64,000 bases of DNA from Streptomyces sp. NBC_01314 (GTDB lineage: Bacteria; Actinomycetota; Actinomycetes; Streptomycetales; Streptomycetaceae). Made by a program: the position numbers and the translations under genes. The stretch spans positions 1,426,001 through 1,490,000 of the forward strand of contig NZ_CP108394.1 of NCBI RefSeq assembly GCF_041435215.1. Reading direction: 5' to 3'. The notes beneath the pieces were generated by a model that was given only the letters and a program-made list of their open reading frames with translations, was not told where the DNA came from and did not search any database. This document shows positions 54,594 to 64,000 of this stretch, piece after piece; the stretch's first letter is position 1; each line of letters opens with the position of its first letter.

Positions 54594-55148
54594 TCATGAT
54601 CGTCTTCGACTGACATCGGCGAACTCCTGCCGGACGTCGGCGTCCCGCCCCAGATCCAGCCGCCAGTCGTTCGACACGCTCCAGTGGCCCTTCGGGTACT
54701 CCGCGGAGACCTCACCGAGCAACGTGAATCCCGCCCTGCGACACACCGCGTTCGACGCGGCGTTCTCCACACGGGGCAGCGCGTGCAGATGGCGGTGGGT
54801 GTTCGCGTCCCGCGCCACCCCGACGACCTCCCGGGCGGCCAGTACGGCCAGCCCCCTGCGCTGGAACTCGGGCAGCACACCCCATCCGGTCTCCCACACC
54901 GTCTCGCCCTGCCGGTCATGCTCCCAGTAGCCGATCGAGCCGACGGTCTCGCCGGTGCCGGCCAACACGACCCGGTACATCCGCCCGGCCGCCACGGCGA
55001 GATAGCGGCGGTGCCGGGCGGCGAGCTGTTCCTCGGTCTCCGGCCCACCCAAGTGCTCGGTCATCCCAGGCGTGTTGATGCGCCGGAGCAGCCAGAAGTC
55101 GTCCGGGGACCAGGGCTCCAACCGCACCCCGCCCGGCTCGCCCGTCAC
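54594..55148 (-). CDS. GNAT-family N-acetyltransferase (RimJ-like)
   Basis: 184-residue acetyltransferase with the acetyl-CoA segment GVLPEFQRRGLAVLAAREVV and the ribosomal-protein-acetylase-like ending NAASNAVCRRAGFTLLGEVSAEYPKG. GTG 55148 overlaps the PIG-L stop (GTGA), so the two are translationally coupled. It may acetylate the amine exposed by the deacetylase or an unrelated substrate. Confidence 0.92.
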   Translation of the reverse strand: MTGEPGGVRLEPWSPDDFWLLRRINTPGMTEHLGGPETEEQLAARHRRYLAVAAGRMYRVVLAGTGETVGSIGYWEHDRQGETVWETGWGVLPEFQRRGLAVLAAREVVGVARDANTHRHLHALPRVENAASNAVCRRAGFTLLGEVSAEYPKGHWSVSNDWRLDLGRDADVRQEFADVSRRRS

Positions 55149-55888
55149 CGGGGAAACACCTCGAAGGCCACGGCCGGCCTGCCGCCGAACCGCTCCCCCA
55201 TGGTCCGCGCGTACCCCGTGAGGAAGTCGCGGACATACGTCTCGGGGTCCTCCTTCGTCAGCACTTCGATGTAGCTGCGGTGTTCCAGGAGGGAGGCGAC
55301 CGCACGGTCGAGGCCGGGGGTGGCGTCGACGGCGTGGGTGGGGTGGGAGGAACTGGCGACGGCGACCCAGCGGACGCCGTCCCAGGGTTCCAGGCCCTGT
55401 TCGACGAGTTCGGGGAAGATCCAGCGGTTCCCCGCGTCGCCTGCGGCGTCCAGGGTGGCGCGGCCCACCGCCACGTGGTCGGGGGTGTTCCAGGCGACCC
55501 CACTCCAGGTGTCGCGGTGGTTGAGGGTGATGACCAGTTCGGGGCGGTGGCGGCGGATGGCGGCCGCGATGTCCCTGCGCAGGGCGAGCCCGTACTCGAT
55601 GACGCCGTCCTCGTGGTCGAGGAACTCGACCTCCGACACACCCACGACGGCCGCGCTCGCCCGCTGCTCCCTCTCACGTAACGGGCCGCACCGGGCGGGC
55701 TCCAGGGTGTCGATGCCGGCCTCGCCGCGCGTCGCCAGGACGTACGCGACCTCGCGGCCCTCGTCGGTCCACGCGGCGATCGCCGCCGAGCAGCCGTACT
55801 CGAGGTCGTCCGGGTGGGCCACGACGGCGAGGGCGCGCCGCCAGTCGTCGGGCATGGGCTTGAGCTGGTCCTTCTGAGGATCCGTCAT
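55145..55888 (-). CDS. PIG-L/MshB-family deacetylase, TTA-containing
   Basis: 247-residue zinc deacetylase. Metal ligands H25 and D28 in AHPDDLEYG and H138 in TPDHVAVG match the MshB/Mca/PIG-L pattern. These enzymes remove N-acetyl groups from GlcNAc-inositol, glycolipids or mycothiol conjugates. Codon 70 (55679-55681) is TTA, suggesting bldA control. No ribosome site precedes ATG 55888. It is followed by a coupled acetyltransferase gene, an interesting deacetylase/acetylase pair. Confidence 0.92.
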   Translation of the reverse strand: MTDPQKDQLKPMPDDWRRALAVVAHPDDLEYGCSAAIAAWTDEGREVAYVLATRGEAGIDTLEPARCGPLREREQRASAAVVGVSEVEFLDHEDGVIEYGLALRRDIAAAIRRHRPELVITLNHRDTWSGVAWNTPDHVAVGRATLDAAGDAGNRWIFPELVEQGLEPWDGVRWVAVASSSHPTHAVDATPGLDRAVASLLEHRSYIEVLTKEDPETYVRDFLTGYARTMGERFGGRPAVAFEVFPR

Positions 55889-55915
55889 GGGCGCACAGTA
55901 ACCCGCGTCACCGAC

Positions 55916-55942
55916 AGCCGGGCGGACTGGCACCGCCCGGCT
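55916..55942 (-). terminator. Hairpin terminator after the S33 peptidase gene
   Basis: Perfect 10-bp stem AGCCGGGCGG/CCGCCCGGCT with a 7-base loop, between the peptidase stop (55956) and the PIG-L start (55888). Confidence 0.65.
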
Positions 55943-55955
55943 CACCCGCCGTCGC

Positions 55956-57257
55956 TCACTCCTCGTCCCGGGTCAGCGCCAGCAGCCGGTCCAGCACCCG
56001 TGGTCCCCCGGCCCGTACGCCGTCGTGTTCGAACTCGTCCGTGACCCAGGTGCGCAGGCCCCGGATGGCGCGGGCGGTCCGCAGGGAGTGGGCCGTGTCG
56101 ACGTACATGTCGTCGTGGTAGATCGCGGCGGCCACCGGGACCTCGTTGACGGCGAGTTGGTCCGGGTCGTACAGGTGCGGCCAGCCCCGCTCCTCGGCCA
56201 GGTCCCGCGCGGTCTCGCGCAGCGGGCGCAGGGCGGGGTCGTTGTCGAACATCCAGGGGTGCACGGACTCTCCCGTGAACAGCACCGGGCCGTCGCCGGT
56301 CAGCGCCTTGGCGGCGTCGAACTGCGGGAACTGGCGGCGCACCCGCTCCGCCGCCCAGCCCGTGTGGCCCGCGTCCTGCCCGTAGCAAGCCTCGTGGAGG
56401 AGTGCGTACAGCGGGTGGCCCGCGTACGACAGCAGGCCCTGGACCTCCTCCTGGAAGGAGTCGGCGAGGACGGGGCCCCGCGGGGCGCGGACGAAGGCGT
56501 CCTCCAGGAGGAAGTGCAGCCGGTGGCTGCCGTCGCCGCGGCCGAGGAGGATGCCGAGGGACTGGAACGCCTCGACGGTGAACCGGTATCCGTTCGGGAG
56601 GACGACGTCGTGCTGGAGCAGGTGCTCGGCGATCCGCCGGGCCCGCTCGACGTCCTGCGGATAGCGGGCGTAGTGCGCGGCGACCTTGCGTTCGACGCGC
56701 GGGTAGGCCGCCCGGTAGACGTCGTCGGCGTTCCCGTCGAGGGAGGGCAGTCCGCCGGTGATGAGGACGGTGCTCAGGCCCTCGGGCGCCTCGGACAGAT
56801 AGGTGACCGCGCAGAAGCCGCCGAAGCTCTGGCCGAGGACGGCCCAGGGGGCGCCGCCGGTGACCTCGGGGCGGATGGCCTCGCAGTCCCGGACGATGGA
56901 GTCGGCGCGGAAGTGGGCGAGGTAGTGGGCCTGTTCGACGGGGCCGCCGCGCAGCGGGAGGGTCTGGCGGTTGGCGGGGGTCGAGGCACCTGTGCCGCGC
57001 TGGTCCAGGAGCAGGACCCGGTACTCCTCCAGGGCCCGGTCCAGCCACGCCTCGCGGCCGACGAAGCGGTTGGCCCCGAAGCCGGGGCCGCCCTGCAGAT
57101 AGACCAGCCAGGGCAGTTCGGCGTCCGCCTTGTCGCTCGCGACGACCTCGCGCGCGTAGAGCTCGATCCGCTCCCCCGCCGGGTCGTCGTGATTGAGGGG
57201 GACGGTGAAGCGGCGGTCGGTGAGGACGACACCGGGCTGCCGGTAGCTGACGGACAA
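55956..57257 (-). CDS. Alpha/beta-hydrolase peptidase (S33, proline iminopeptidase-like)
   Basis: About 433 residues. Nucleophile Ser in LGQSFGGFC, oxyanion region LQGGPGFG, conserved LLLDQRGTG and a C-terminal EFEHDGVRAG region for the catalytic His. It matches the long proline iminopeptidase branch of family S33, which releases N-terminal proline from peptides. TTG 57257 is chosen because GGGAG lies just upstream and the protein then begins SVSYRQPGVV; a GTG at 57305 is the longer alternative. Appears monocistronic. Confidence 0.9.
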   Translation of the reverse strand: MSVSYRQPGVVLTDRRFTVPLNHDDPAGERIELYAREVVASDKADAELPWLVYLQGGPGFGANRFVGREAWLDRALEEYRVLLLDQRGTGASTPANRQTLPLRGGPVEQAHYLAHFRADSIVRDCEAIRPEVTGGAPWAVLGQSFGGFCAVTYLSEAPEGLSTVLITGGLPSLDGNADDVYRAAYPRVERKVAAHYARYPQDVERARRIAEHLLQHDVVLPNGYRFTVEAFQSLGILLGRGDGSHRLHFLLEDAFVRAPRGPVLADSFQEEVQGLLSYAGHPLYALLHEACYGQDAGHTGWAAERVRRQFPQFDAAKALTGDGPVLFTGESVHPWMFDNDPALRPLRETARDLAEERGWPHLYDPDQLAVNEVPVAAAIYHDDMYVDTAHSLRTARAIRGLRTWVTDEFEHDGVRAGGPRVLDRLLALTRDEE

Positions 57258-57346
57258 CAGGGCTCCCTGAGCGGACGGATTCCAGGCCGTGGTCCAGTCC
57301 AACACAGATTCTTCGCCCGGCCGACCCCGTGGATCAAGAAATTCCC

Positions 57347-57403: not shown

Positions 57404-58429
57404 TCAGCGCGCCGAGAGGCTGGAGCGCCGCACCACCAACTCCGGCTGGAGGACGACCCGCCGGTGCTCGTGCCGGAGGAGCGCGGTCTCGGCCTCGGTC
57501 TCCTCCAGGAGGAGTTCGGCGGCGAGGGCGCCCATGGTGACGGCGGGCTGCCGTACGGAGGTGAGGGGGACGGCGGCCGCGGCGGCGAACTCGATGTCGT
57601 CGTAGCCGACGATGGCGAGGTCCCCGGGGACGCTCACCCCGGCCGCGTACATGGCCTGGAGCACGCCGAGGGCGAGCAGGTCGTTGGCACAGAAGACGGC
57701 GGTGGGGCGGTCGACGAGGCCGAGGAGGCGGGCGCCCGCGTCCCGGCCGGCGGCCACGTCGAGGCGTTCGGTGGGCAACTCCCGCAGGGCGTCGGCGCCG
57801 AGTCCCGCCTCACGCAGGGCGTTCAGGGCGCCCGTACGGCGGTCGCGAACCTGGTTGAGGCCCGCCGGTCCGCTGACGTACGCGATGGAACGGTGGCCCG
57901 CGTCGACCAGGTGACGAACGGCGAGGGCGCCGCCCGCGACGTCGTCGACGGAGACCGAGCACTCGGTGGTGCCCTCGGCGACCCGGTCGACGAGGACGAA
58001 GGGGATGCCGTGGCGGCGGAACGCCGCGATGTTGCGTCCGGTCGCGTCGGCGGGGGTGAGCAGCACTCCGCGCACCCGCTGTTCGGCGAAGAGAGAGAGG
58101 TAGTCGGACTCCTCGCCCGCGCTCTGCGCGCTGTTGCAGACCATCACGCCGAGTCCGGCGTCGCGCGCGGCCCGCTCGGCACCACGCGCGACGTCGACGA
58201 AGAAGGGGTTGCCCATGTCGAGCACGAGCAGCCCCATGATCCGGCTCCGCCCGGCCCGCAGTTGGCGCGCCGACTCGCTGCGGACATAGCCGAGACGGTC
58301 GATCGCCGCCTGCACCCGGGCCCGGGTCCCGGAGGCCACCGAGTCGGGCCGGTTGATGACGTTGGAAACCGTGCCGACGGAGACTCCGGCGGCTGCGGCG
58401 ACGTCCTTGATACCCACCGGCTGCGACAT
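57404..58429 (-). CDS. LacI-family regulator, probable rhamnose-locus repressor
   Basis: 341-residue LacI/GalR regulator. Helix-turn-helix GIKDVAAAAGVSVGTVSNVINRPDSV (about 6-30) with hinge, then a sugar-binding periplasmic-binding-protein-like domain (MGLLVLDMGNPFF, VFCANDLLALGVLQA, IVGYDDIEFA). ATG 58429 is preceded by GGAGG at a slightly long distance. As the last gene of the rhamnose transport/propeller-enzyme unit it most likely represses the operon, with L-rhamnose or a rhamnosyl oligosaccharide as inducer. Confidence 0.92.
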   Translation of the reverse strand: MSQPVGIKDVAAAAGVSVGTVSNVINRPDSVASGTRARVQAAIDRLGYVRSESARQLRAGRSRIMGLLVLDMGNPFFVDVARGAERAARDAGLGVMVCNSAQSAGEESDYLSLFAEQRVRGVLLTPADATGRNIAAFRRHGIPFVLVDRVAEGTTECSVSVDDVAGGALAVRHLVDAGHRSIAYVSGPAGLNQVRDRRTGALNALREAGLGADALRELPTERLDVAAGRDAGARLLGLVDRPTAVFCANDLLALGVLQAMYAAGVSVPGDLAIVGYDDIEFAAAAAVPLTSVRQPAVTMGALAAELLLEETEAETALLRHEHRRVVLQPELVVRRSSLSAR

Positions 58430-58543
58430 CGTACGGGGACCTCCAGGAAGGTATGGAGCGGCGGGCATACGTTCACACTACCGTCGGGGCCGCTACTTGA
58501 ACGGCCCGGTCAGGCGGCAGAATCGTTGCCCTGGGTGCGGGAA

Positions 58544-59968
58544 TCAGGCGGGCAGGGCGAAGTCGACGACACGGAGCGCCGACGGCGTCGTACCGCTGGA
58601 CTTCACCTGGTACATCACGGACAGGACATTGTCCTGGGCGATGCGGCTCTCGTCGAACACGACCTCGCCGAAGGCGTTGAGGCCGCTGGCGTCGAACAGC
58701 ACCTTCCAGTCGGTGTAGCCGGAGGAGGCCGACGCTCCCCATATCCGGCCGAAGGGCAGGATCGCGTACGCGTTGTTGTACTTGTCCAGCGCCAGCTTGG
58801 TGCGCTGGCTGGAGCCGAGCGCGACCGGGATCTCGGTCTTCTGCCAGGTGCCGGAGGAGTTCTTGCGGACGTGGAAGGCGCGGCCGTTCGCGGTGCGGTT
58901 GGTGACGTAGTTCGTCGTGCACTGGCCGAAGCGGCCCGGGACGTAGCTGATGATCGCGTGCGGCCGGCCGGCCGAGTCGGTGGCCTGGCTCTCCTGGTTC
59001 ATCAGGGAGTGGTCCGGGTTCAGCGCGTCGATCACCAGTCCGCTGTCGGTGACGGAGACCTTGTCGGAACCGCCGGTGGTGCCGACGGCGGTGCCCGCGT
59101 TGTTGCGCCAGGTGCGGCCGAGGTCGTCCGAGTAGACATAGCCGGTGTCGTGGTTGGTGATGCCGCCGCCGTTGCACATCACGGCGCCGTTCTGCTCGCG
59201 CCAGGTGAAGAAGGAGTGCAGCCGGCCGTTCTTGTCGTAGTCGATGCCGTGCAGGTACATGTTGCGGACGGTGCTGGAGCCGTGCTCGCTGGTGTACGTG
59301 CCGGTGGAGCTGGTCCACTCGCCGAGGTTGGTCCACGAGGTGCCGTTGTACTCGGCGATGGCGTTGCGGCCGTTGCCGGAGATACCGACGCGGTAGCTCA
59401 GCTGGAGCTTGCCGTCGGGCATCGAGACGAACTGCGGGTACGTGAACTGCGAGGTGAGCGCCAGCCCGTCGAGGGTGGACTGCGGGGCGCCGAAGCGGCT
59501 CGTGGTCCAGCTCAGGCCCGCCGGGTTGTCCATGAGGCCGGCGACCGACTTGACGTAGGTGAAGCCGTCGCTGTGCGAGTCCATGTTGAGGTGGAGACGG
59601 CCGTCGACCTTGGAGACGCCCATGGAGATGACGTTGTGGGAGTCGTTGTAGCGCAGGGTGTGGCCGACCTGGACCGTGGACCAGGTGCTGGAGCCCAGGA
59701 CGCGGCGGCCGACGACGGCGTTGCGGTCGGCGGTGTACCAGACGGCGTACTGGTAGCCCTTGTAGGTCAGCAGACCGTTCTTCTGGAACGAGTTGTTGTT
59801 GACCAGGCCGTCGTAGGACACGAAGAAGATGGCCTGGCTGTCGAGCAGCGTGTTGCCGGTCTGGCTGACGGACGGGCCGGGGTCGGCGGCACGGGCGGTG
59901 GCGGCGCCGAGGACGGGGCTCACCACGGCGCCGGCGAGTGCGGCGCCGAGCAGCGTACGTCTCTTCAT
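58544..59968 (-). CDS. Secreted BNR_4-type beta-propeller enzyme, predicted rhamnosyl-uronate/ulvan-type lyase
   Basis: 474-residue exported protein. Signal peptide with KRRTLLGAALAGAVV and cleavage near ATARA-A28. The rest has BNR/Asp-box features of a seven-bladed propeller (TGYVYSDDLGRTWRNN). H111, H132, Y177 and R193 are placed almost exactly as the four catalytic residues I recall for PL25 ulvan lyase (His123, His143, Tyr188, Arg204). ATG 59968 follows GGAG. Together with RhaM and the rhamnose transporter this suggests cleavage of a rhamnose-uronic acid polymer outside the cell. An alternative is a GH145/PL42-like rhamnosyl-glucuronate enzyme or a non-catalytic propeller. Confidence 0.8.
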   Translation of the reverse strand: MKRRTLLGAALAGAVVSPVLGAATARAADPGPSVSQTGNTLLDSQAIFFVSYDGLVNNNSFQKNGLLTYKGYQYAVWYTADRNAVVGRRVLGSSTWSTVQVGHTLRYNDSHNVISMGVSKVDGRLHLNMDSHSDGFTYVKSVAGLMDNPAGLSWTTSRFGAPQSTLDGLALTSQFTYPQFVSMPDGKLQLSYRVGISGNGRNAIAEYNGTSWTNLGEWTSSTGTYTSEHGSSTVRNMYLHGIDYDKNGRLHSFFTWREQNGAVMCNGGGITNHDTGYVYSDDLGRTWRNNAGTAVGTTGGSDKVSVTDSGLVIDALNPDHSLMNQESQATDSAGRPHAIISYVPGRFGQCTTNYVTNRTANGRAFHVRKNSSGTWQKTEIPVALGSSQRTKLALDKYNNAYAILPFGRIWGASASSGYTDWKVLFDASGLNAFGEVVFDESRIAQDNVLSVMYQVKSSGTTPSALRVVDFALPA

Positions 59969-60027
59969 CTCGGGGACTCCATTGTCGAGCGAAATGGGGA
60001 GGGGGAGGGTGTTGCGACCTGCGGGGG

Positions 60028-60348
60028 TCAGGCGAGGTGGAAGACCTCGGTGAGGGGCTTCATGGCCTCGTCGGGCCGGGCGCCGTCGAGGGACTCGAAG
60101 AACGGCGCCATCTCCTTCTGCCAGCGGGCGTTGACCTCGGCGGCCTCCATGCCGGCGAGTGCCGCCTGGAAGTCCTCGGTCTCCAGGTAGCCCACGAGGA
60201 GGCCGTCGTCGCGCAGGAAGAGGGAGTAGTTGTGCCAGCCGGTGGCCGAGAGAGCCTGAAGCATCTCCGGCCACACGGCTGCGTGCCGTTCGCGGTACTC
60301 GTCGATCCGGTCCTGACGGACCTTGAGGAGGAAGCAGACGCGCTGCAT
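60028..60348 (-). CDS. rhaM: L-rhamnose mutarotase
   Basis: 106-residue dimeric alpha/beta protein that interconverts the alpha and beta anomers of L-rhamnose. Catalytic H22 is present in YRERHAAVWPEM, as in E. coli RhaM, with WHNYSLFLRDDGLLVGYLE following. ATG 60348 follows AGGAGCGG. Lying between the propeller enzyme and the rhamnose binding protein, it identifies the sugar handled by the locus. Confidence 0.93.
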   Translation of the reverse strand: MQRVCFLLKVRQDRIDEYRERHAAVWPEMLQALSATGWHNYSLFLRDDGLLVGYLETEDFQAALAGMEAAEVNARWQKEMAPFFESLDGARPDEAMKPLTEVFHLA

Positions 60349-60398
60349 GAGATACCGCTCCTGGGGTGAGGGGGGTGGCTGTAACGCCGGTTCGGTGA

Positions 60399-61481
60399 TC
60401 AGAAGTCGAACTTGTCGATGTTCGCCTTGTTGAACACGGTGGGCTTGCCGAGGCTGATCACGCCGTCCTTGCCGATGGTGTACTCGCCCATGGCACCGGC
60501 GGTGAAGGTCTCGCCCTCCTTGCCGGTGATCTGGCCGGAGGCCAGCGCCACCGCGGTACGGGCGGCCAGCTCACCGAGCTTCGCCGGGTCCCACAGCTCG
60601 AAGCCCTCGACGGTGCCGTCCTTGACGTACTTGCGCATGTCGTTGGGGGTGCCGAGGCCGGTCAGCTTGACCTTGCCCTTGTACTTGGAGCCCGACAGGT
60701 ACTGGGCGGCGGCCTTGATGCCGACCGTGGTCGGGGAGATGATCCCCTTCAGCTTCGGGTACTCCTGGAGCAGGCCCTGGGTCTGCTGGAAGGACTTCTG
60801 GGCGTCGTCGTCACCGTAGGCGACCTTGACCAGCTTGATGTCCTTGTACTTGGGGTCCTCCAGCTCCTTCTTCATGAAGTCGATCCAGACGTTCTGGTTC
60901 GTCGCGGTCTGCGCGGCCGACAGGACGGCGATCTCGCCCTTGAAGCCGATCTGCTCGGCGAGCAGCTGGACCTCGGTGCGGCCGAGGTCCTCGGCGCTGG
61001 CCTGCGAGACGAAGGCGTTACGGCACTCCGGCTTGGTGTCGGAGTCGTAGGTGACGACCTTGATGTCGTTGCTCATGGCCTGCTTGAGCGCGGTGCACAG
61101 GGCGCCCGGGTCCTGCGCGGAGACGGCCATGGCGTCGACCTGCTGCTGGGTGAGCGTGTTGACGTAGTTCACCTGGCCGGAGGTGTCCGTGGCGCTGGAC
61201 GGGCCGACCTCCTTGTAGCTGGAGCCGAGCTCCTTCAGGGCCGCCTCGCCGCCCTTGTCGGCGGAGGTGAAGTACGGGTTGTTGACCTGCTTGGGCAGGA
61301 AGCCGACGGTCAGGCCCTTCTTCAGCTCGGCGTTCGGGTCGGCCTTGCCGGTGGCCGCCGCGGTGGCGGTGTCGTCCTTGACGTCGGTCTTCGTGGTGCC
61401 GCCACAGGCGGTGGCGGCCAGAGCGAAGGAGGTGACGGCGGCGAGCGCCGCACAGGAACGACGGAGGGTTGCTCTGCGCAT
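60399..61481 (-). CDS. rhaS: Rhamnose ABC transporter substrate-binding lipoprotein
   Basis: 360-residue binding lipoprotein with signal peptide and lipobox ALAATAC, then the RbsB-like fold (GFLPKQVNNPYFTSADKGGEAALKELG, YDSDTKPECRNAFVSQAS). It matches the RhaS-type L-rhamnose binding protein. ATG 61481 follows AAAGGA. The neighbours RhaQ, RhaP and RhaT complete the importer; RhaM directly downstream supports rhamnose as ligand. It is separated from rhaQ by an intergenic repeat, perhaps allowing a higher level than the membrane parts. Confidence 0.92.
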   Translation of the reverse strand: MRRATLRRSCAALAAVTSFALAATACGGTTKTDVKDDTATAAATGKADPNAELKKGLTVGFLPKQVNNPYFTSADKGGEAALKELGSSYKEVGPSSATDTSGQVNYVNTLTQQQVDAMAVSAQDPGALCTALKQAMSNDIKVVTYDSDTKPECRNAFVSQASAEDLGRTEVQLLAEQIGFKGEIAVLSAAQTATNQNVWIDFMKKELEDPKYKDIKLVKVAYGDDDAQKSFQQTQGLLQEYPKLKGIISPTTVGIKAAAQYLSGSKYKGKVKLTGLGTPNDMRKYVKDGTVEGFELWDPAKLGELAARTAVALASGQITGKEGETFTAGAMGEYTIGKDGVISLGKPTVFNKANIDKFDF

Positions 61482-61529
61482 GACGAGGGTTCCTTTACGA
61501 GGAGGAGTGGTGTGACACGCCCGTTTTCT

Positions 61530-61597
61530 CGGGGGCGCGGGGAACTGCTTCTTGGGGGCGCGGGGGTACCGCGCGACCAGCCACGAACGACCGGCAG
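61530..61597. repeat. Dispersed Streptomyces intergenic repeat, copy 2
   Basis: Contains GGGGGCGCGGGGAACTGC and CGCGACCAGCCACGAACG, related to the inverse element at 41461-41509. The GGGGGCGCGGGG part is duplicated within it. It lies between rhaQ and rhaS in the rhamnose operon. Confidence 0.6.
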
Positions 61598-61600
61598 ATT

Positions 61601-62635
61601 TCAGGTGACCGTCCTTCCAACGGTCTTTCCGACGGAGCCACCCGCGGATTTTCGGCCGGCCCGAGCGAGAGCGACCTGCCTCGCCACCCGGGGACCGAGC
61701 ACGGACAGCACGAGCAGGACACCCGTGACGACGATCTGCGACTGCGCCGAGACGTCCTGCAGGCTCATCACGTTCTGCAGGGTGCCGAGCAGGAACACGC
61801 CGGCGATCGCGCCGCCGAGCGTCCCCTTGCCTCCGTCGAAGTCGATGCCACCGAGCAACACGGCGGCGATGACGGAGAGTTCGAGTCCGGTCGCGTTGTC
61901 GTAGCGGGCGCTGGCGTAGTGCAGCGCCCAGAAGATGCCGGTGAGGGAGGCCATGAGGCCGGTCACCGTGAAGAGGATCAGCTTCTGGCGCTTGACACGG
62001 ATGCCGGTGAAGCGTGCGGCCTCCTCACTGGCGCCGATCGCGAACAGGGAACGCCCGAACGGGGTGGCGTGCAGGACGATCACGGCGATGACGAGCAGCA
62101 CCAGGAAGGGGATGAGTGCCCGGGGAACGAAGCTGTCGCCGATCCGGCCGGCCGCGAAGTCGAGGTACTGCGTGGGGAAGTCGGTCACCGCGTCGGAGCC
62201 GAGCACGATCTGCGCGATGCCCCGGTAGGCGGCGAGCGTACCGATGGTGACGGCGAGGGAGGACAGGCCGAGCCGGGTGACCAGCAGGCCGTTGATCAGT
62301 CCGCAGACGACGCCGAGGAGGAGACAGATCGGGATGATCGCCTCGATGGTCAGGCCCTGGTTCCACAGGACGCCCATCACCGCGCCGGACAGGCCGGCGG
62401 TGGAGGCGACCGACAGATCGATCTCGCCGGAGACCACGAGGAGGGTCATCGGGAGGGCGACCAGCGCGATCGGCAGGGTGTTGCCGATGAGGAAGGACAG
62501 GTTGAGCGCGTTGCCGAAGCCGTCCACGGTGGAGAAGGACAGCAGGAGCACGACGATGAACGTGGCACCGACGGCCGAATCCCACCTTTTCAGGGCGGAC
62601 CAGCGGCTCGCGCGCGACAGGGTGGAGTCAGCCAT
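61601..62635 (-). CDS. rhaQ: Rhamnose ABC transporter permease
   Basis: 344-residue permease with about eight to nine membrane helices and the family motif VSGEIDLSVASTAGLSG plus LLGGIDFDGGKGTLGGAIAG. It is the second of two permeases (RhaP/RhaQ) that form a heterodimer in rhamnose importers. ATG 62635 overlaps the rhaP stop by 8 bp. Together with RhaP, RhaT and RhaS it imports L-rhamnose. Confidence 0.93.
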   Translation of the reverse strand: MADSTLSRASRWSALKRWDSAVGATFIVVLLLSFSTVDGFGNALNLSFLIGNTLPIALVALPMTLLVVSGEIDLSVASTAGLSGAVMGVLWNQGLTIEAIIPICLLLGVVCGLINGLLVTRLGLSSLAVTIGTLAAYRGIAQIVLGSDAVTDFPTQYLDFAAGRIGDSFVPRALIPFLVLLVIAVIVLHATPFGRSLFAIGASEEAARFTGIRVKRQKLILFTVTGLMASLTGIFWALHYASARYDNATGLELSVIAAVLLGGIDFDGGKGTLGGAIAGVFLLGTLQNVMSLQDVSAQSQIVVTGVLLVLSVLGPRVARQVALARAGRKSAGGSVGKTVGRTVT

Positions 62636-63668
62636 GGCGGGCGTTCCTCTTCTTCAGGGCTGCAGCCACCCGCAGCGCGACCACACGGTCCACCGCGATG
62701 GCGAGGATGAGCAGGATGCCGTTGATGGCCAGCACCCACACCGAGCTGACGCCGAGGGCGGGCAGCACGCTGTTGATGGAGGTCAGCAGGAGGGCGCCGA
62801 GCGCCGCGCCGTAGACACTGCCGGAGCCGCCGGTGAAGACGACGCCGCCGACCACGACGGCGCTGACGACGGTGAGTTCGTAGCCGTTGCCGGTGCTGGA
62901 GTCGACGTTGCCGAAGCGGGCCAGGTAGAGCGCTCCGGCGAGGCCGGCGAGGGCGCCGCAGAAGGTGTAGGCGACCAGGATCCGCTTGCGGACCGGGATG
63001 CCGGCGAGCCGGGCGGCCTCCGGGTTGGAGCCGAGGGCGTACAGCTCGCGGCCGCTGCCGAAGTGCTTCATGTAGTACGCCGTGGCCACCAGCACCACCA
63101 CCGCGATCAGCGCCAGGTACGGCACCGCGGAGATACCGCCGGAGCCGAAGTCGATGAATCCGTCGGGCAGGGCGGACGCGGTGATCTGGCGGGAGCCGAC
63201 CCAGATCGAGTCGATGCCCCGGATGATGTAGAGCGTGCCGAGGGTGACCACGAGGGCGGGCACCTGGCCGAGGCTGACGAGCAGACCGTTCAGCAGGCCG
63301 AAGCCGATGCCCAGCAGGACCGCCAGGAGCACGGCCACGACCGGGTTCCCGCCGCCCTGGAGATAGATGCCGGCGGCGAAGGCGCTGATGCCGAGGGTGG
63401 AGCCGACCGACAGGTCGACGTTCCGGGTGATGACGACCAGCGACTGGCCTACGGCGACCAGCACCAGGATGGTCGCGTTGAGCAGGAGGTCCTTGATGCC
63501 CTGCTCGGTGAGGAACTCGCTGTTGCCCAGCTGGGTGACGACGATCATCACCAGGAAGACGACCAGGATGGCGAGTTCACGCATCTTGAAGACGCGGTCC
63601 ACGAGCCGGGTGCCGCTGGACTTGGGCACCTCGGCGACGGGGGTGTTCTGAGGGGTGGTCACCGTCAT
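62628..63668 (-). CDS. rhaP: Rhamnose ABC transporter permease
   Basis: 346-residue permease with motif [21 protein letters not shown] and [23 protein letters not shown] 63668 is set by GGGAGGG and shares an ATGA overlap with the upstream ATPase gene. It pairs with RhaQ, encoded directly downstream with an 8-bp overlap, so the operon order is rhaT-rhaP-rhaQ-rhaS. Confidence 0.93.
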
Positions 63669-64000
63669 GCGGCGGCCCTCCCGGTGGCTGCGGCCATCAC
63701 GGTTTCCTCGGTGGCTTCGGAGCGAGGGATCTCGGCGGTGAGCCGGCCCTCGTGCATCACGAGCACGCGGTCGGCCATACCGAGGATCTCGGGCAGATCG
63801 GAGGAGATCATCAGCACGGCCACCCCGTCGGCGGCGAGCTGACTGAGGAGGCGGTGCACCTCGGCCTTCGTACCGACGTCGATGCCCCGGGTGGGCTCGT
63901 CGACGATCAGCACCTTCGGCCCGGTGGCGAGCCACTTGGCGAGGACGACCTTCTGCTGGTTGCCGCCGGACAGCGTGTTGACGCTGTCGGCGATCCGGGC
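63665..64000 (-). CDS. rhaT: Rhamnose ABC transporter ATPase, C-terminal 111 residues only
   Basis: The gene enters from the right window edge. The visible part starts [20 protein letters not shown] (signature of the second nucleotide-binding domain) and contains Walker [20 protein letters not shown] and the switch region [19 protein letters not shown]. It matches the end of a double-domain RbsA/RhaT-type ATPase. ATGA overlap with rhaP shows tight coupling. Confidence 0.9.

What the first reader, a model, noticed from the sequence alone, without database searches (positions are those of the whole stretch)
57404..64000. Rhamnose import operon carrying a secreted propeller enzyme with a lyase-like catalytic pattern
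The locus holds RhaT-P-Q-S, RhaM, a LacI regulator and, between RhaM and LacI, an exported BNR-type propeller. In that protein H111, H132, Y177 and R193 reproduce, within one residue of spacing, the four active-site residues I recall for PL25 ulvan lyase. The locus would link extracellular cleavage of a rhamnose-uronate polymer (ulvan, gum arabic/arabinogalactan-type side chains or another rhamnose glycan) with uptake of L-rhamnose. I do not know this arrangement described in Streptomyces. The residue match relies on memory of the PL25 numbering.
Basis: partly seen in the sequence, partly recalled or inferred. Interest (0 to 1): 0.72.

Follow-up and report, generated by a model that had tools for sequence, protein, structure and literature searches.

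The report
Rhamnose-uncapping lyase in a rhamnose operon
A Streptomyces operon for taking up the plant sugar L-rhamnose also encodes a secreted enzyme that closely resembles a fungal lyase cutting rhamnose caps off plant arabinogalactan, so the cell probably harvests the rhamnose it then imports.

Summary

Context supports this. RhaM-PL42-LacI is kept in 80 of 80 near Streptomyces loci; rha genes accompany ~50% identical relatives in 6 of 6 Nocardiopsidaceae stretches, with shuffled order. Two LacI-type palindromes mark the rhaT/rhaI promoter region; the six other exact copies in the genome lie at five GH78 rhamnosidases and one ABC/rhamnogalacturonan-lyase-like cluster. Three stand-alone PL42 genes carry their own copy. 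One paralogue overlaps a galactanase gene by 4 nt, without the palindrome. Activity is untested, and the genome lacks a GH88/GH105 follow-up enzyme. Enzyme family and regulon are known; their coupling was not found in the papers searched.

The parts
58544..59968 (-). Secreted PL42-type propeller (474 aa; predicted L-rhamnose-alpha-1,4-D-glucuronate lyase)
   Evidence: (BNR_4 PF15892 2.5e-80); ATG preceded by GGAG
59888..59968 (-). Twin-arginine-like export signal of the propeller (about residues 1-27; read by eye)
   Evidence: sequence MKRRTLLGAALAGAVVSPVLGAATARA; low pLDDT at the N-terminus
59636..59638 (-). codon of H111, equivalent of FoRham1 base/acid catalyst His85
59573..59575 (-). codon of H132, equivalent of His105
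59438..59440 (-). codon of Y177, equivalent of Tyr150
59390..59392 (-). codon of R193, equivalent of the charge neutraliser Arg166
60028..60348 (-). RhaM, L-rhamnose mutarotase
60399..61481 (-). RhaS, L-rhamnose ABC substrate-binding protein
   Evidence: TIGR02637 over its cut-off
61601..62635 (-). RhaQ-type permease (by position)
62628..63668 (-). RhaP-type permease (by position)
63665..64000 (-). RhaT, ABC ATPase, 3' end only; gene continues to 65182 in window numbering (L003 7665-9182)
57404..58468 (-). LacI-family regulator (RhaR candidate)
   Evidence: conserved next to the lyase

Best explanation
The propeller is a PL42-type L-rhamnose-α-1,4-D-glucuronate lyase. It is exported and, by β-elimination on the anterior face (H111 as base/acid supported by H132 and D109; R193 neutralising the uronate carboxylate; Y177 in the site), removes terminal L-rhamnose from Rha-α-1,4-GlcA ends of plant type-II arabinogalactan / AGPs, leaving a 4,5-unsaturated glucuronyl end. 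Because it cuts the O4-C4 bond it releases free L-rhamnose, which fits the monosaccharide importer RhaSTPQ. RhaM interconverts the anomers, and the divergent operon (RhaI, RhaB, bifunctional RhaEW, Lut-type lactate oxidation) takes it to DHAP and, via lactate, to pyruvate. The lyase is transcribed within the rhaT-P-Q-S-M-lyase-lacI row under two LacI-type operators in the rhaT/rhaI divergent promoter region, co-regulated with unlinked GH78 rhamnosidases. Shown by computation: gene content, predicted fold, residue identity, context conservation, palindrome distribution. Inferred: activity, substrate, export, regulator binding, single transcript.
Against: No activity measured. The own genome has no GH88/GH105 (PF07470) hydrolase for the unsaturated product, and 49 of 103 PL42-bearing genomes have none, so full arabinogalactan use is not implied. 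The galactanase-coupled paralogue L091 has no palindrome and is only 56% identical; the 4-nt overlap depends on the start codon my script chose. Bacteroides relatives with this active site act on red-wine AGP but not gum arabic (PMC8406133 passages), so the exact glycan may differ. FoRham1 Y26, a rhamnose contact, is F61 here. Many Streptomyces rha loci lack the lyase (72 of 169 RhaS-positive genomes, 77 if fragment-only matches count as lacking), so it is an accessory. The 80 loci are the nearest 80 of 239 found and are close kin.
Confidence: 0.82

Rival explanations
1. It is a PL25/PL24-type endo-lyase of ulvan or another sulphated rhamnose-uronate polymer.
Against: PL42 is closer by sequence and structure; the FoRham1 rhamnose-binding set N275, Q276, R331, E381 is kept in 120 of 120 Streptomyces-search proteins; FoRham1 has only trace activity on ulvan. 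I did not compare PL25 sulphate-binding residues.
Confidence: 0.05
2. It is a BT3686-type (former GH145) retaining alpha-rhamnosidase using a posterior site, rather than a lyase.
For: The second-nearest solved relatives are these Bacteroides proteins; the only NCBIfam match is the BT3686 rhamnosidase model (108 bits).
Against: 108 bits is far below the cut-off of 700; the catalytic His48 of BT3686 is Y69 here (alignment; Y in 113 and H in 7 of 120 Streptomyces-search proteins), while the anterior lyase residues are kept.
Confidence: 0.05
3. It is a PL42 lyase, but for another Rha-GlcA glycan (sulphated or decorated AGP, bacterial capsule or exopolysaccharide) rather than ordinary plant AGP caps.
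For: Bacteroides members cut wine AGP but not gum arabic (PMC8406133); F61 replaces Y26 of FoRham1; only one close AGP-enzyme neighbour was found (L091).
Against: The rest of the FoRham1 binding set is kept; the own genome also encodes a 67% relative of the endo-beta-1,6-galactanase paired with the L091 paralogue.
Confidence: 0.2
4. It is a non-catalytic rhamnose-binding or scaffold propeller.
For: Lectin propellers share the fold at lower Z (about 26-27).
Against: The complete lyase set is invariant or nearly so across 327 aligned proteins, unlike a decayed enzyme.
Confidence: 0.03

Closest known systems
FoRham1, PL42 L-rhamnose-alpha-1,4-D-glucuronate lyase of Fusarium oxysporum (7esk-7esn; PMC8377490, PMC10951650)
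   Same: Fold, His-His-Asp and Tyr/Arg active site, rhamnose- and glucuronate-binding residues, secreted
   Different: 36% identity in the pairwise alignment; bacterial, inside a rhamnose import operon; Y26 to F61; fungal enzyme characterised, this one not
Bacteroides former-GH145 proteins BT3686, BACCELL_00856, BACPLE_00338 (PMC8406133; GH145 was reclassified as PL42, PMC10951650 passage)
   Same: Same propeller (solved for the first two) and anterior lyase residues; AGP-directed
   Different: 23-24% identity for the two; BT3686 also has a posterior hydrolase His48, absent here; found in polysaccharide utilisation loci, not a rha operon
PL25 (PLSV_3936) and PL24 (LOR_107) ulvan lyases
   Same: Fold and catalytic residue layout
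Actinomycetales RhaR (LacI) L-rhamnose regulon (Rodionov et al. 2013, PMC3870299)
   Same: LacI regulator, RhaEW, ABC importer in several genomes, L-lactate dehydrogenase genes, alpha-L-rhamnosidases in the regulon
   Different: No BNR propeller lyase mentioned in the passages I read; binding motif not compared because the logo is in a figure

Membership tests
PL42 | Sequence homology to FoRham1 above other propeller lyases | tested here: met
   8e-33 over residues 59-475; other families far weaker
PL42 | Seven-bladed propeller superposing on FoRham1 | tested here: met
PL42 | His-His-Asp triad, Tyr and Arg neutraliser of the anterior site | tested here: met
   D109, H111, H132, Y177, R193
PL42 | Rhamnose/GlcA binding set of FoRham1 | tested here: met
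   S170, Y202, R220, N275, Q276, R331, E381 kept; Y26 replaced by F, as in 68 of 87 fungal-search members
PL42 | Release of rhamnose and an unsaturated glucuronyl end | not testable with these tools
   needs enzyme assay
PL25 ulvan lyase | His/His/Tyr/Arg spacing of PLSV_3936 | tested here: met
   21/45/16 against 20/45/16; shared with PL42, so not diagnostic
PL25 ulvan lyase | PL25 nearest by sequence and structure | tested here: not met
BT3686-type alpha-L-rhamnosidase (former GH145) | Posterior catalytic His48 | tested here: not met
   alignment: Y69
BT3686-type alpha-L-rhamnosidase (former GH145) | NCBIfam NF052497 cut-off | tested here: not met
   108 of 700 bits
Actinomycetales LacI-RhaR rhamnose regulon | RhaI, RhaEW, rhamnulokinase, ABC importer and LacI regulator together | tested here: met
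   RhaI, RhaEW and RhaS over equivalog cut-offs, rhamnulokinase 476 bits under its cut-off of 528
Actinomycetales LacI-RhaR rhamnose regulon | RhaR binding motif as published | not tested
   motif derived here de novo; published logo not readable as text

The most novel reading that the evidence does not exclude
Actinobacteria run a cap-harvesting strategy. A rhamnose-controlled lyase strips only terminal rhamnose from plant arabinogalactan proteins and imports it, often without the GH88/GH105 enzyme needed to use the uncapped chain, so these soil and root bacteria edit plant AGP ends while leaving the chains. In other actinobacterial members a histidine at the BT3686 His48 position (65 of 120 in the Nocardiopsis-led set) may add a second, hydrolytic site.
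Probability: 0.2. Interest if true: 0.65.

Novelty: new variant of a known kind. Interest (0 to 1): 0.45.

Why it matters
It gives a testable function, with substrate, mechanism, inducer and regulator, to a large set of proteins now mostly named 'BNR repeat-containing protein' (1077 matches, of which the best 120 were listed and the named ones are Streptomyces). It joins an enzyme of arabinogalactan-protein uncapping to the rhamnose regulon. One Streptomyces genome paper lists PL42 under pectin (PMC11475409, one passage); the evidence here points to arabinogalactan instead. A bacterial enzyme of this specificity would also be a tool for AGP analysis.

Tried and rejected
PL25 membership: rejected on relative similarity. 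BT3686-type hydrolase: rejected on Y69 and the NCBIfam cut-off. The PF13088 search of the own genome does not hit this gene. A first phylum sample with the protein found only Streptomyces (6 of 396); a class sample with PF15892 (42 of 394) then found relatives in other families, so understates the spread. BNR_4 proteins at 24-35% identity in other actinobacteria (L143-L147, L154-L157) are another subfamily and were not counted, although L145 stands next to RhaS; three stretches with weak BNR_4 matches (L158-L160) showed no match to the lyase. In family f89, 6 of 8 genomes with a BNR_4 match were fetched; the two with weak matches (G843, G1020) were not. L110's GH43 neighbour is an endo-arabinanase relative, so it does not support the arabinogalactan-II reading. 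L148-L151 hold no exact palindrome; each has one site with a single mismatch, upstream of rhaI (L148) or in the region before rhaT (L149-L151), against 0-0.05 per mononucleotide shuffle: suggestive only. Of the 6 PL42-without-RhaS genomes, G101, G180 and G102 have eroded or missing transporter genes in the same locus and G086 a broken lyase; G085 and G228 were not examined. Only 13 of the 72 RhaS-only genomes were read. No tree was built. Literature: seven searches listed no paper that I recognised as tying PL42 to a rhamnose operon, and for Streptomyces only a CAZyme table; subscription journals are mostly not in that library. Papers were seen as listings, abstracts or passages, except part 1 of 7 of PMC8377490. 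That Uly1 is a PL24 enzyme is recalled.
Full report
Check of the observation. The genes are as described. The propeller ORF, read from ATG at 59968 with GGAG upstream, is 474 aa, starts with a twin-arginine-like signal, and matches BNR_4 (2.5e-80) as its only Pfam family. H111, H132, Y177 and R193 are present.

The operon and pathway. The lyase lies between rhaM and lacI, 59 and 75 nt from its neighbours, on the strand of rhaT-P-Q-S-M. Beyond the window (L003) and divergent from rhaT stand RhaI (TIGR02635, 672 bits), RhaEW (TIGR02632, 1109 bits), a rhamnulokinase (476 bits, under its cut-off of 528) and LutA/LutB-like lactate-oxidation proteins, followed by a frame that I take for LutC by position only. 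Rodionov et al. 2013 predicted LacI-RhaR regulons in Actinomycetales, with RhaEW, ABC importers, rhamnosidases and, in some, lldEFG (PMC3870299 passages); the passages I read name no propeller lyase. FoRham1-type cleavage breaks O4-C4 and frees rhamnose itself, which is what RhaS-type importers carry; this step is inference.

Conservation of context. Of 239 relatives found in named genomes the best 80 were returned, all Streptomyces; RhaM-PL42-LacI stands in that order in 80 of 80, with gaps of 18-177 and 38-87 nt. In 295 Streptomyces species genomes 103 have a match, five of them with small fragments only. Of 20 stretches chosen around mostly low-identity or broken copies, 17 hold rha genes; seven of these (L094-L096, L100, L102-L104) have a diverged RhaPQS set, and in the four tested (L094, L095, L100, L102) a GH78 gene stands between rhaI and rhaT. 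Three do not hold rha genes: L091, L092, L107. In Nocardiopsidaceae six relatives of about 50% identity were fetched and all six stretches hold rha genes, with the lyase after RhaM (L149-L151), between RhaI and RhaEW (L148), one sugar-transporter-like gene (about 2 kb) from RhaM (L153), or about 4.6 kb from RhaB (L152). Repeated neighbourhood in different orders argues for function, not only shared ancestry. PL42 and RhaS co-occur across the 295 (97/6/72/120), not corrected for kinship. Thirteen of the 72 RhaS-only genomes were read: in 12 the LacI gene follows RhaM or RhaS, in one (L187) no LacI match was seen; L189, L190 and L191, from genomes with fragments, keep lyase remnants between RhaM and LacI. 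The lyase is thus an accessory that can be lost.

Regulation. The rhaT/rhaI divergent region holds both TGAAACCTTTCA and TGAA(A/T)CGATTCA in 78 of 78 loci where it could be cut out; none of 80 RhaM-PL42 or 80 PL42-LacI gaps holds TGAANNNNTTCA, so the lyase should depend on the rhaT promoter. The pattern TGAAWSSWTTCA has 8 places in the 11.3-Mb own genome and none for the reversed control: two in the divergon, five at GH78 alpha-L-rhamnosidase genes (L169, with a LacI gene between site and GH78; L170; L171, judged by its length and first 45 residues identical to L170's; L173; L174, with a divergent LacI gene), one before an ABC sugar-binding gene, with a PcRGLX-type rhamnogalacturonan-lyase-like gene further along (L172). 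Other LacI proteins may share the motif. Where PL42 stands apart from the rha operon, L107 and L092 carry a site 34 and 26 nt before the ATG and L153 one in its promoter region. L091 does not.

Substrate. FoRham1 is active on Rha-GlcA and gum arabic, trace on ulvan and larch arabinogalactan, not detectable on RG-I oligosaccharides (PMC8377490 passages). Bacteroides relatives act on wine AGP but not gum arabic (PMC8406133 passages). The L091 paralogue overlaps by 4 nt a GH30 gene matching the S. [quoted passage not shown] PMC13431644 passages), and the window's own genome encodes a 67% relative of that galactanase elsewhere. Against complete AGP use: no PF07470 hydrolase in the own genome; among 103 PL42-bearing genomes 54 have one against 22 of 192 others, a positive but incomplete link, not corrected for kinship.

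Verdict. A PL42-type lyase, very likely for Rha-GlcA caps of plant arabinogalactan, wired into the rhamnose regulon. The family and the regulon are known; their coupling, its palindrome evidence and its presence in two actinobacterial families were not found described in seven literature searches.

Noticed in passing
L091 9728-12639 (unnamed Streptomyces G099): A second PL42 (56% identical) overlaps by 4 nt a gene matching the S. [quoted passage not shown] likely a two-gene arabinogalactan set, without the rha palindrome.
   Followed up: partly
L170 4841-10526 and L171 5348-10785 (own genome): A 1120-aa GH78-type gene with a divergent 476-aa AbfB-type gene appears twice in the own genome, the first 45 residues of the GH78 alike, each with the palindrome; looks like a recent duplication about 5 Mb apart.
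   Followed up: no
alignment, proteins P0243-P0362: 65 of 120 relatives found with a Nocardiopsis query have His at the BT3686 His48 position together with an intact anterior lyase site: candidates for two active sites in one propeller.
   Followed up: no
L145 8610-14395: A distant BNR_4 protein (27% identity) follows a RhaT-P-Q-S set, with a GH28 gene close by; perhaps another rhamnose-releasing propeller subfamily for pectin.
   Followed up: no
L097, L098, L099, L193: Rhamnose loci in which ABC importer genes are eroded or missing while RhaM and the lyase remain; another importer must serve.
   Followed up: no
L102 and L103: Two LacI-type genes in tandem behind the lyase, and a third, more distant LacI-type gene further on.
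   Followed up: no
window 55145-57305: An alpha/beta hydrolase (75 of 80 loci) and a PIG-L deacetylase (62 of 80) gene follow lacI on the same strand; link to rhamnose unknown.
   Followed up: no
protein P0138 (Paramyrothecium foliicola): A fungal relative 68% identical to FoRham1 is named 'Ulvan lyase, long isoform' in a public record, probably a misnomer.
   Followed up: no
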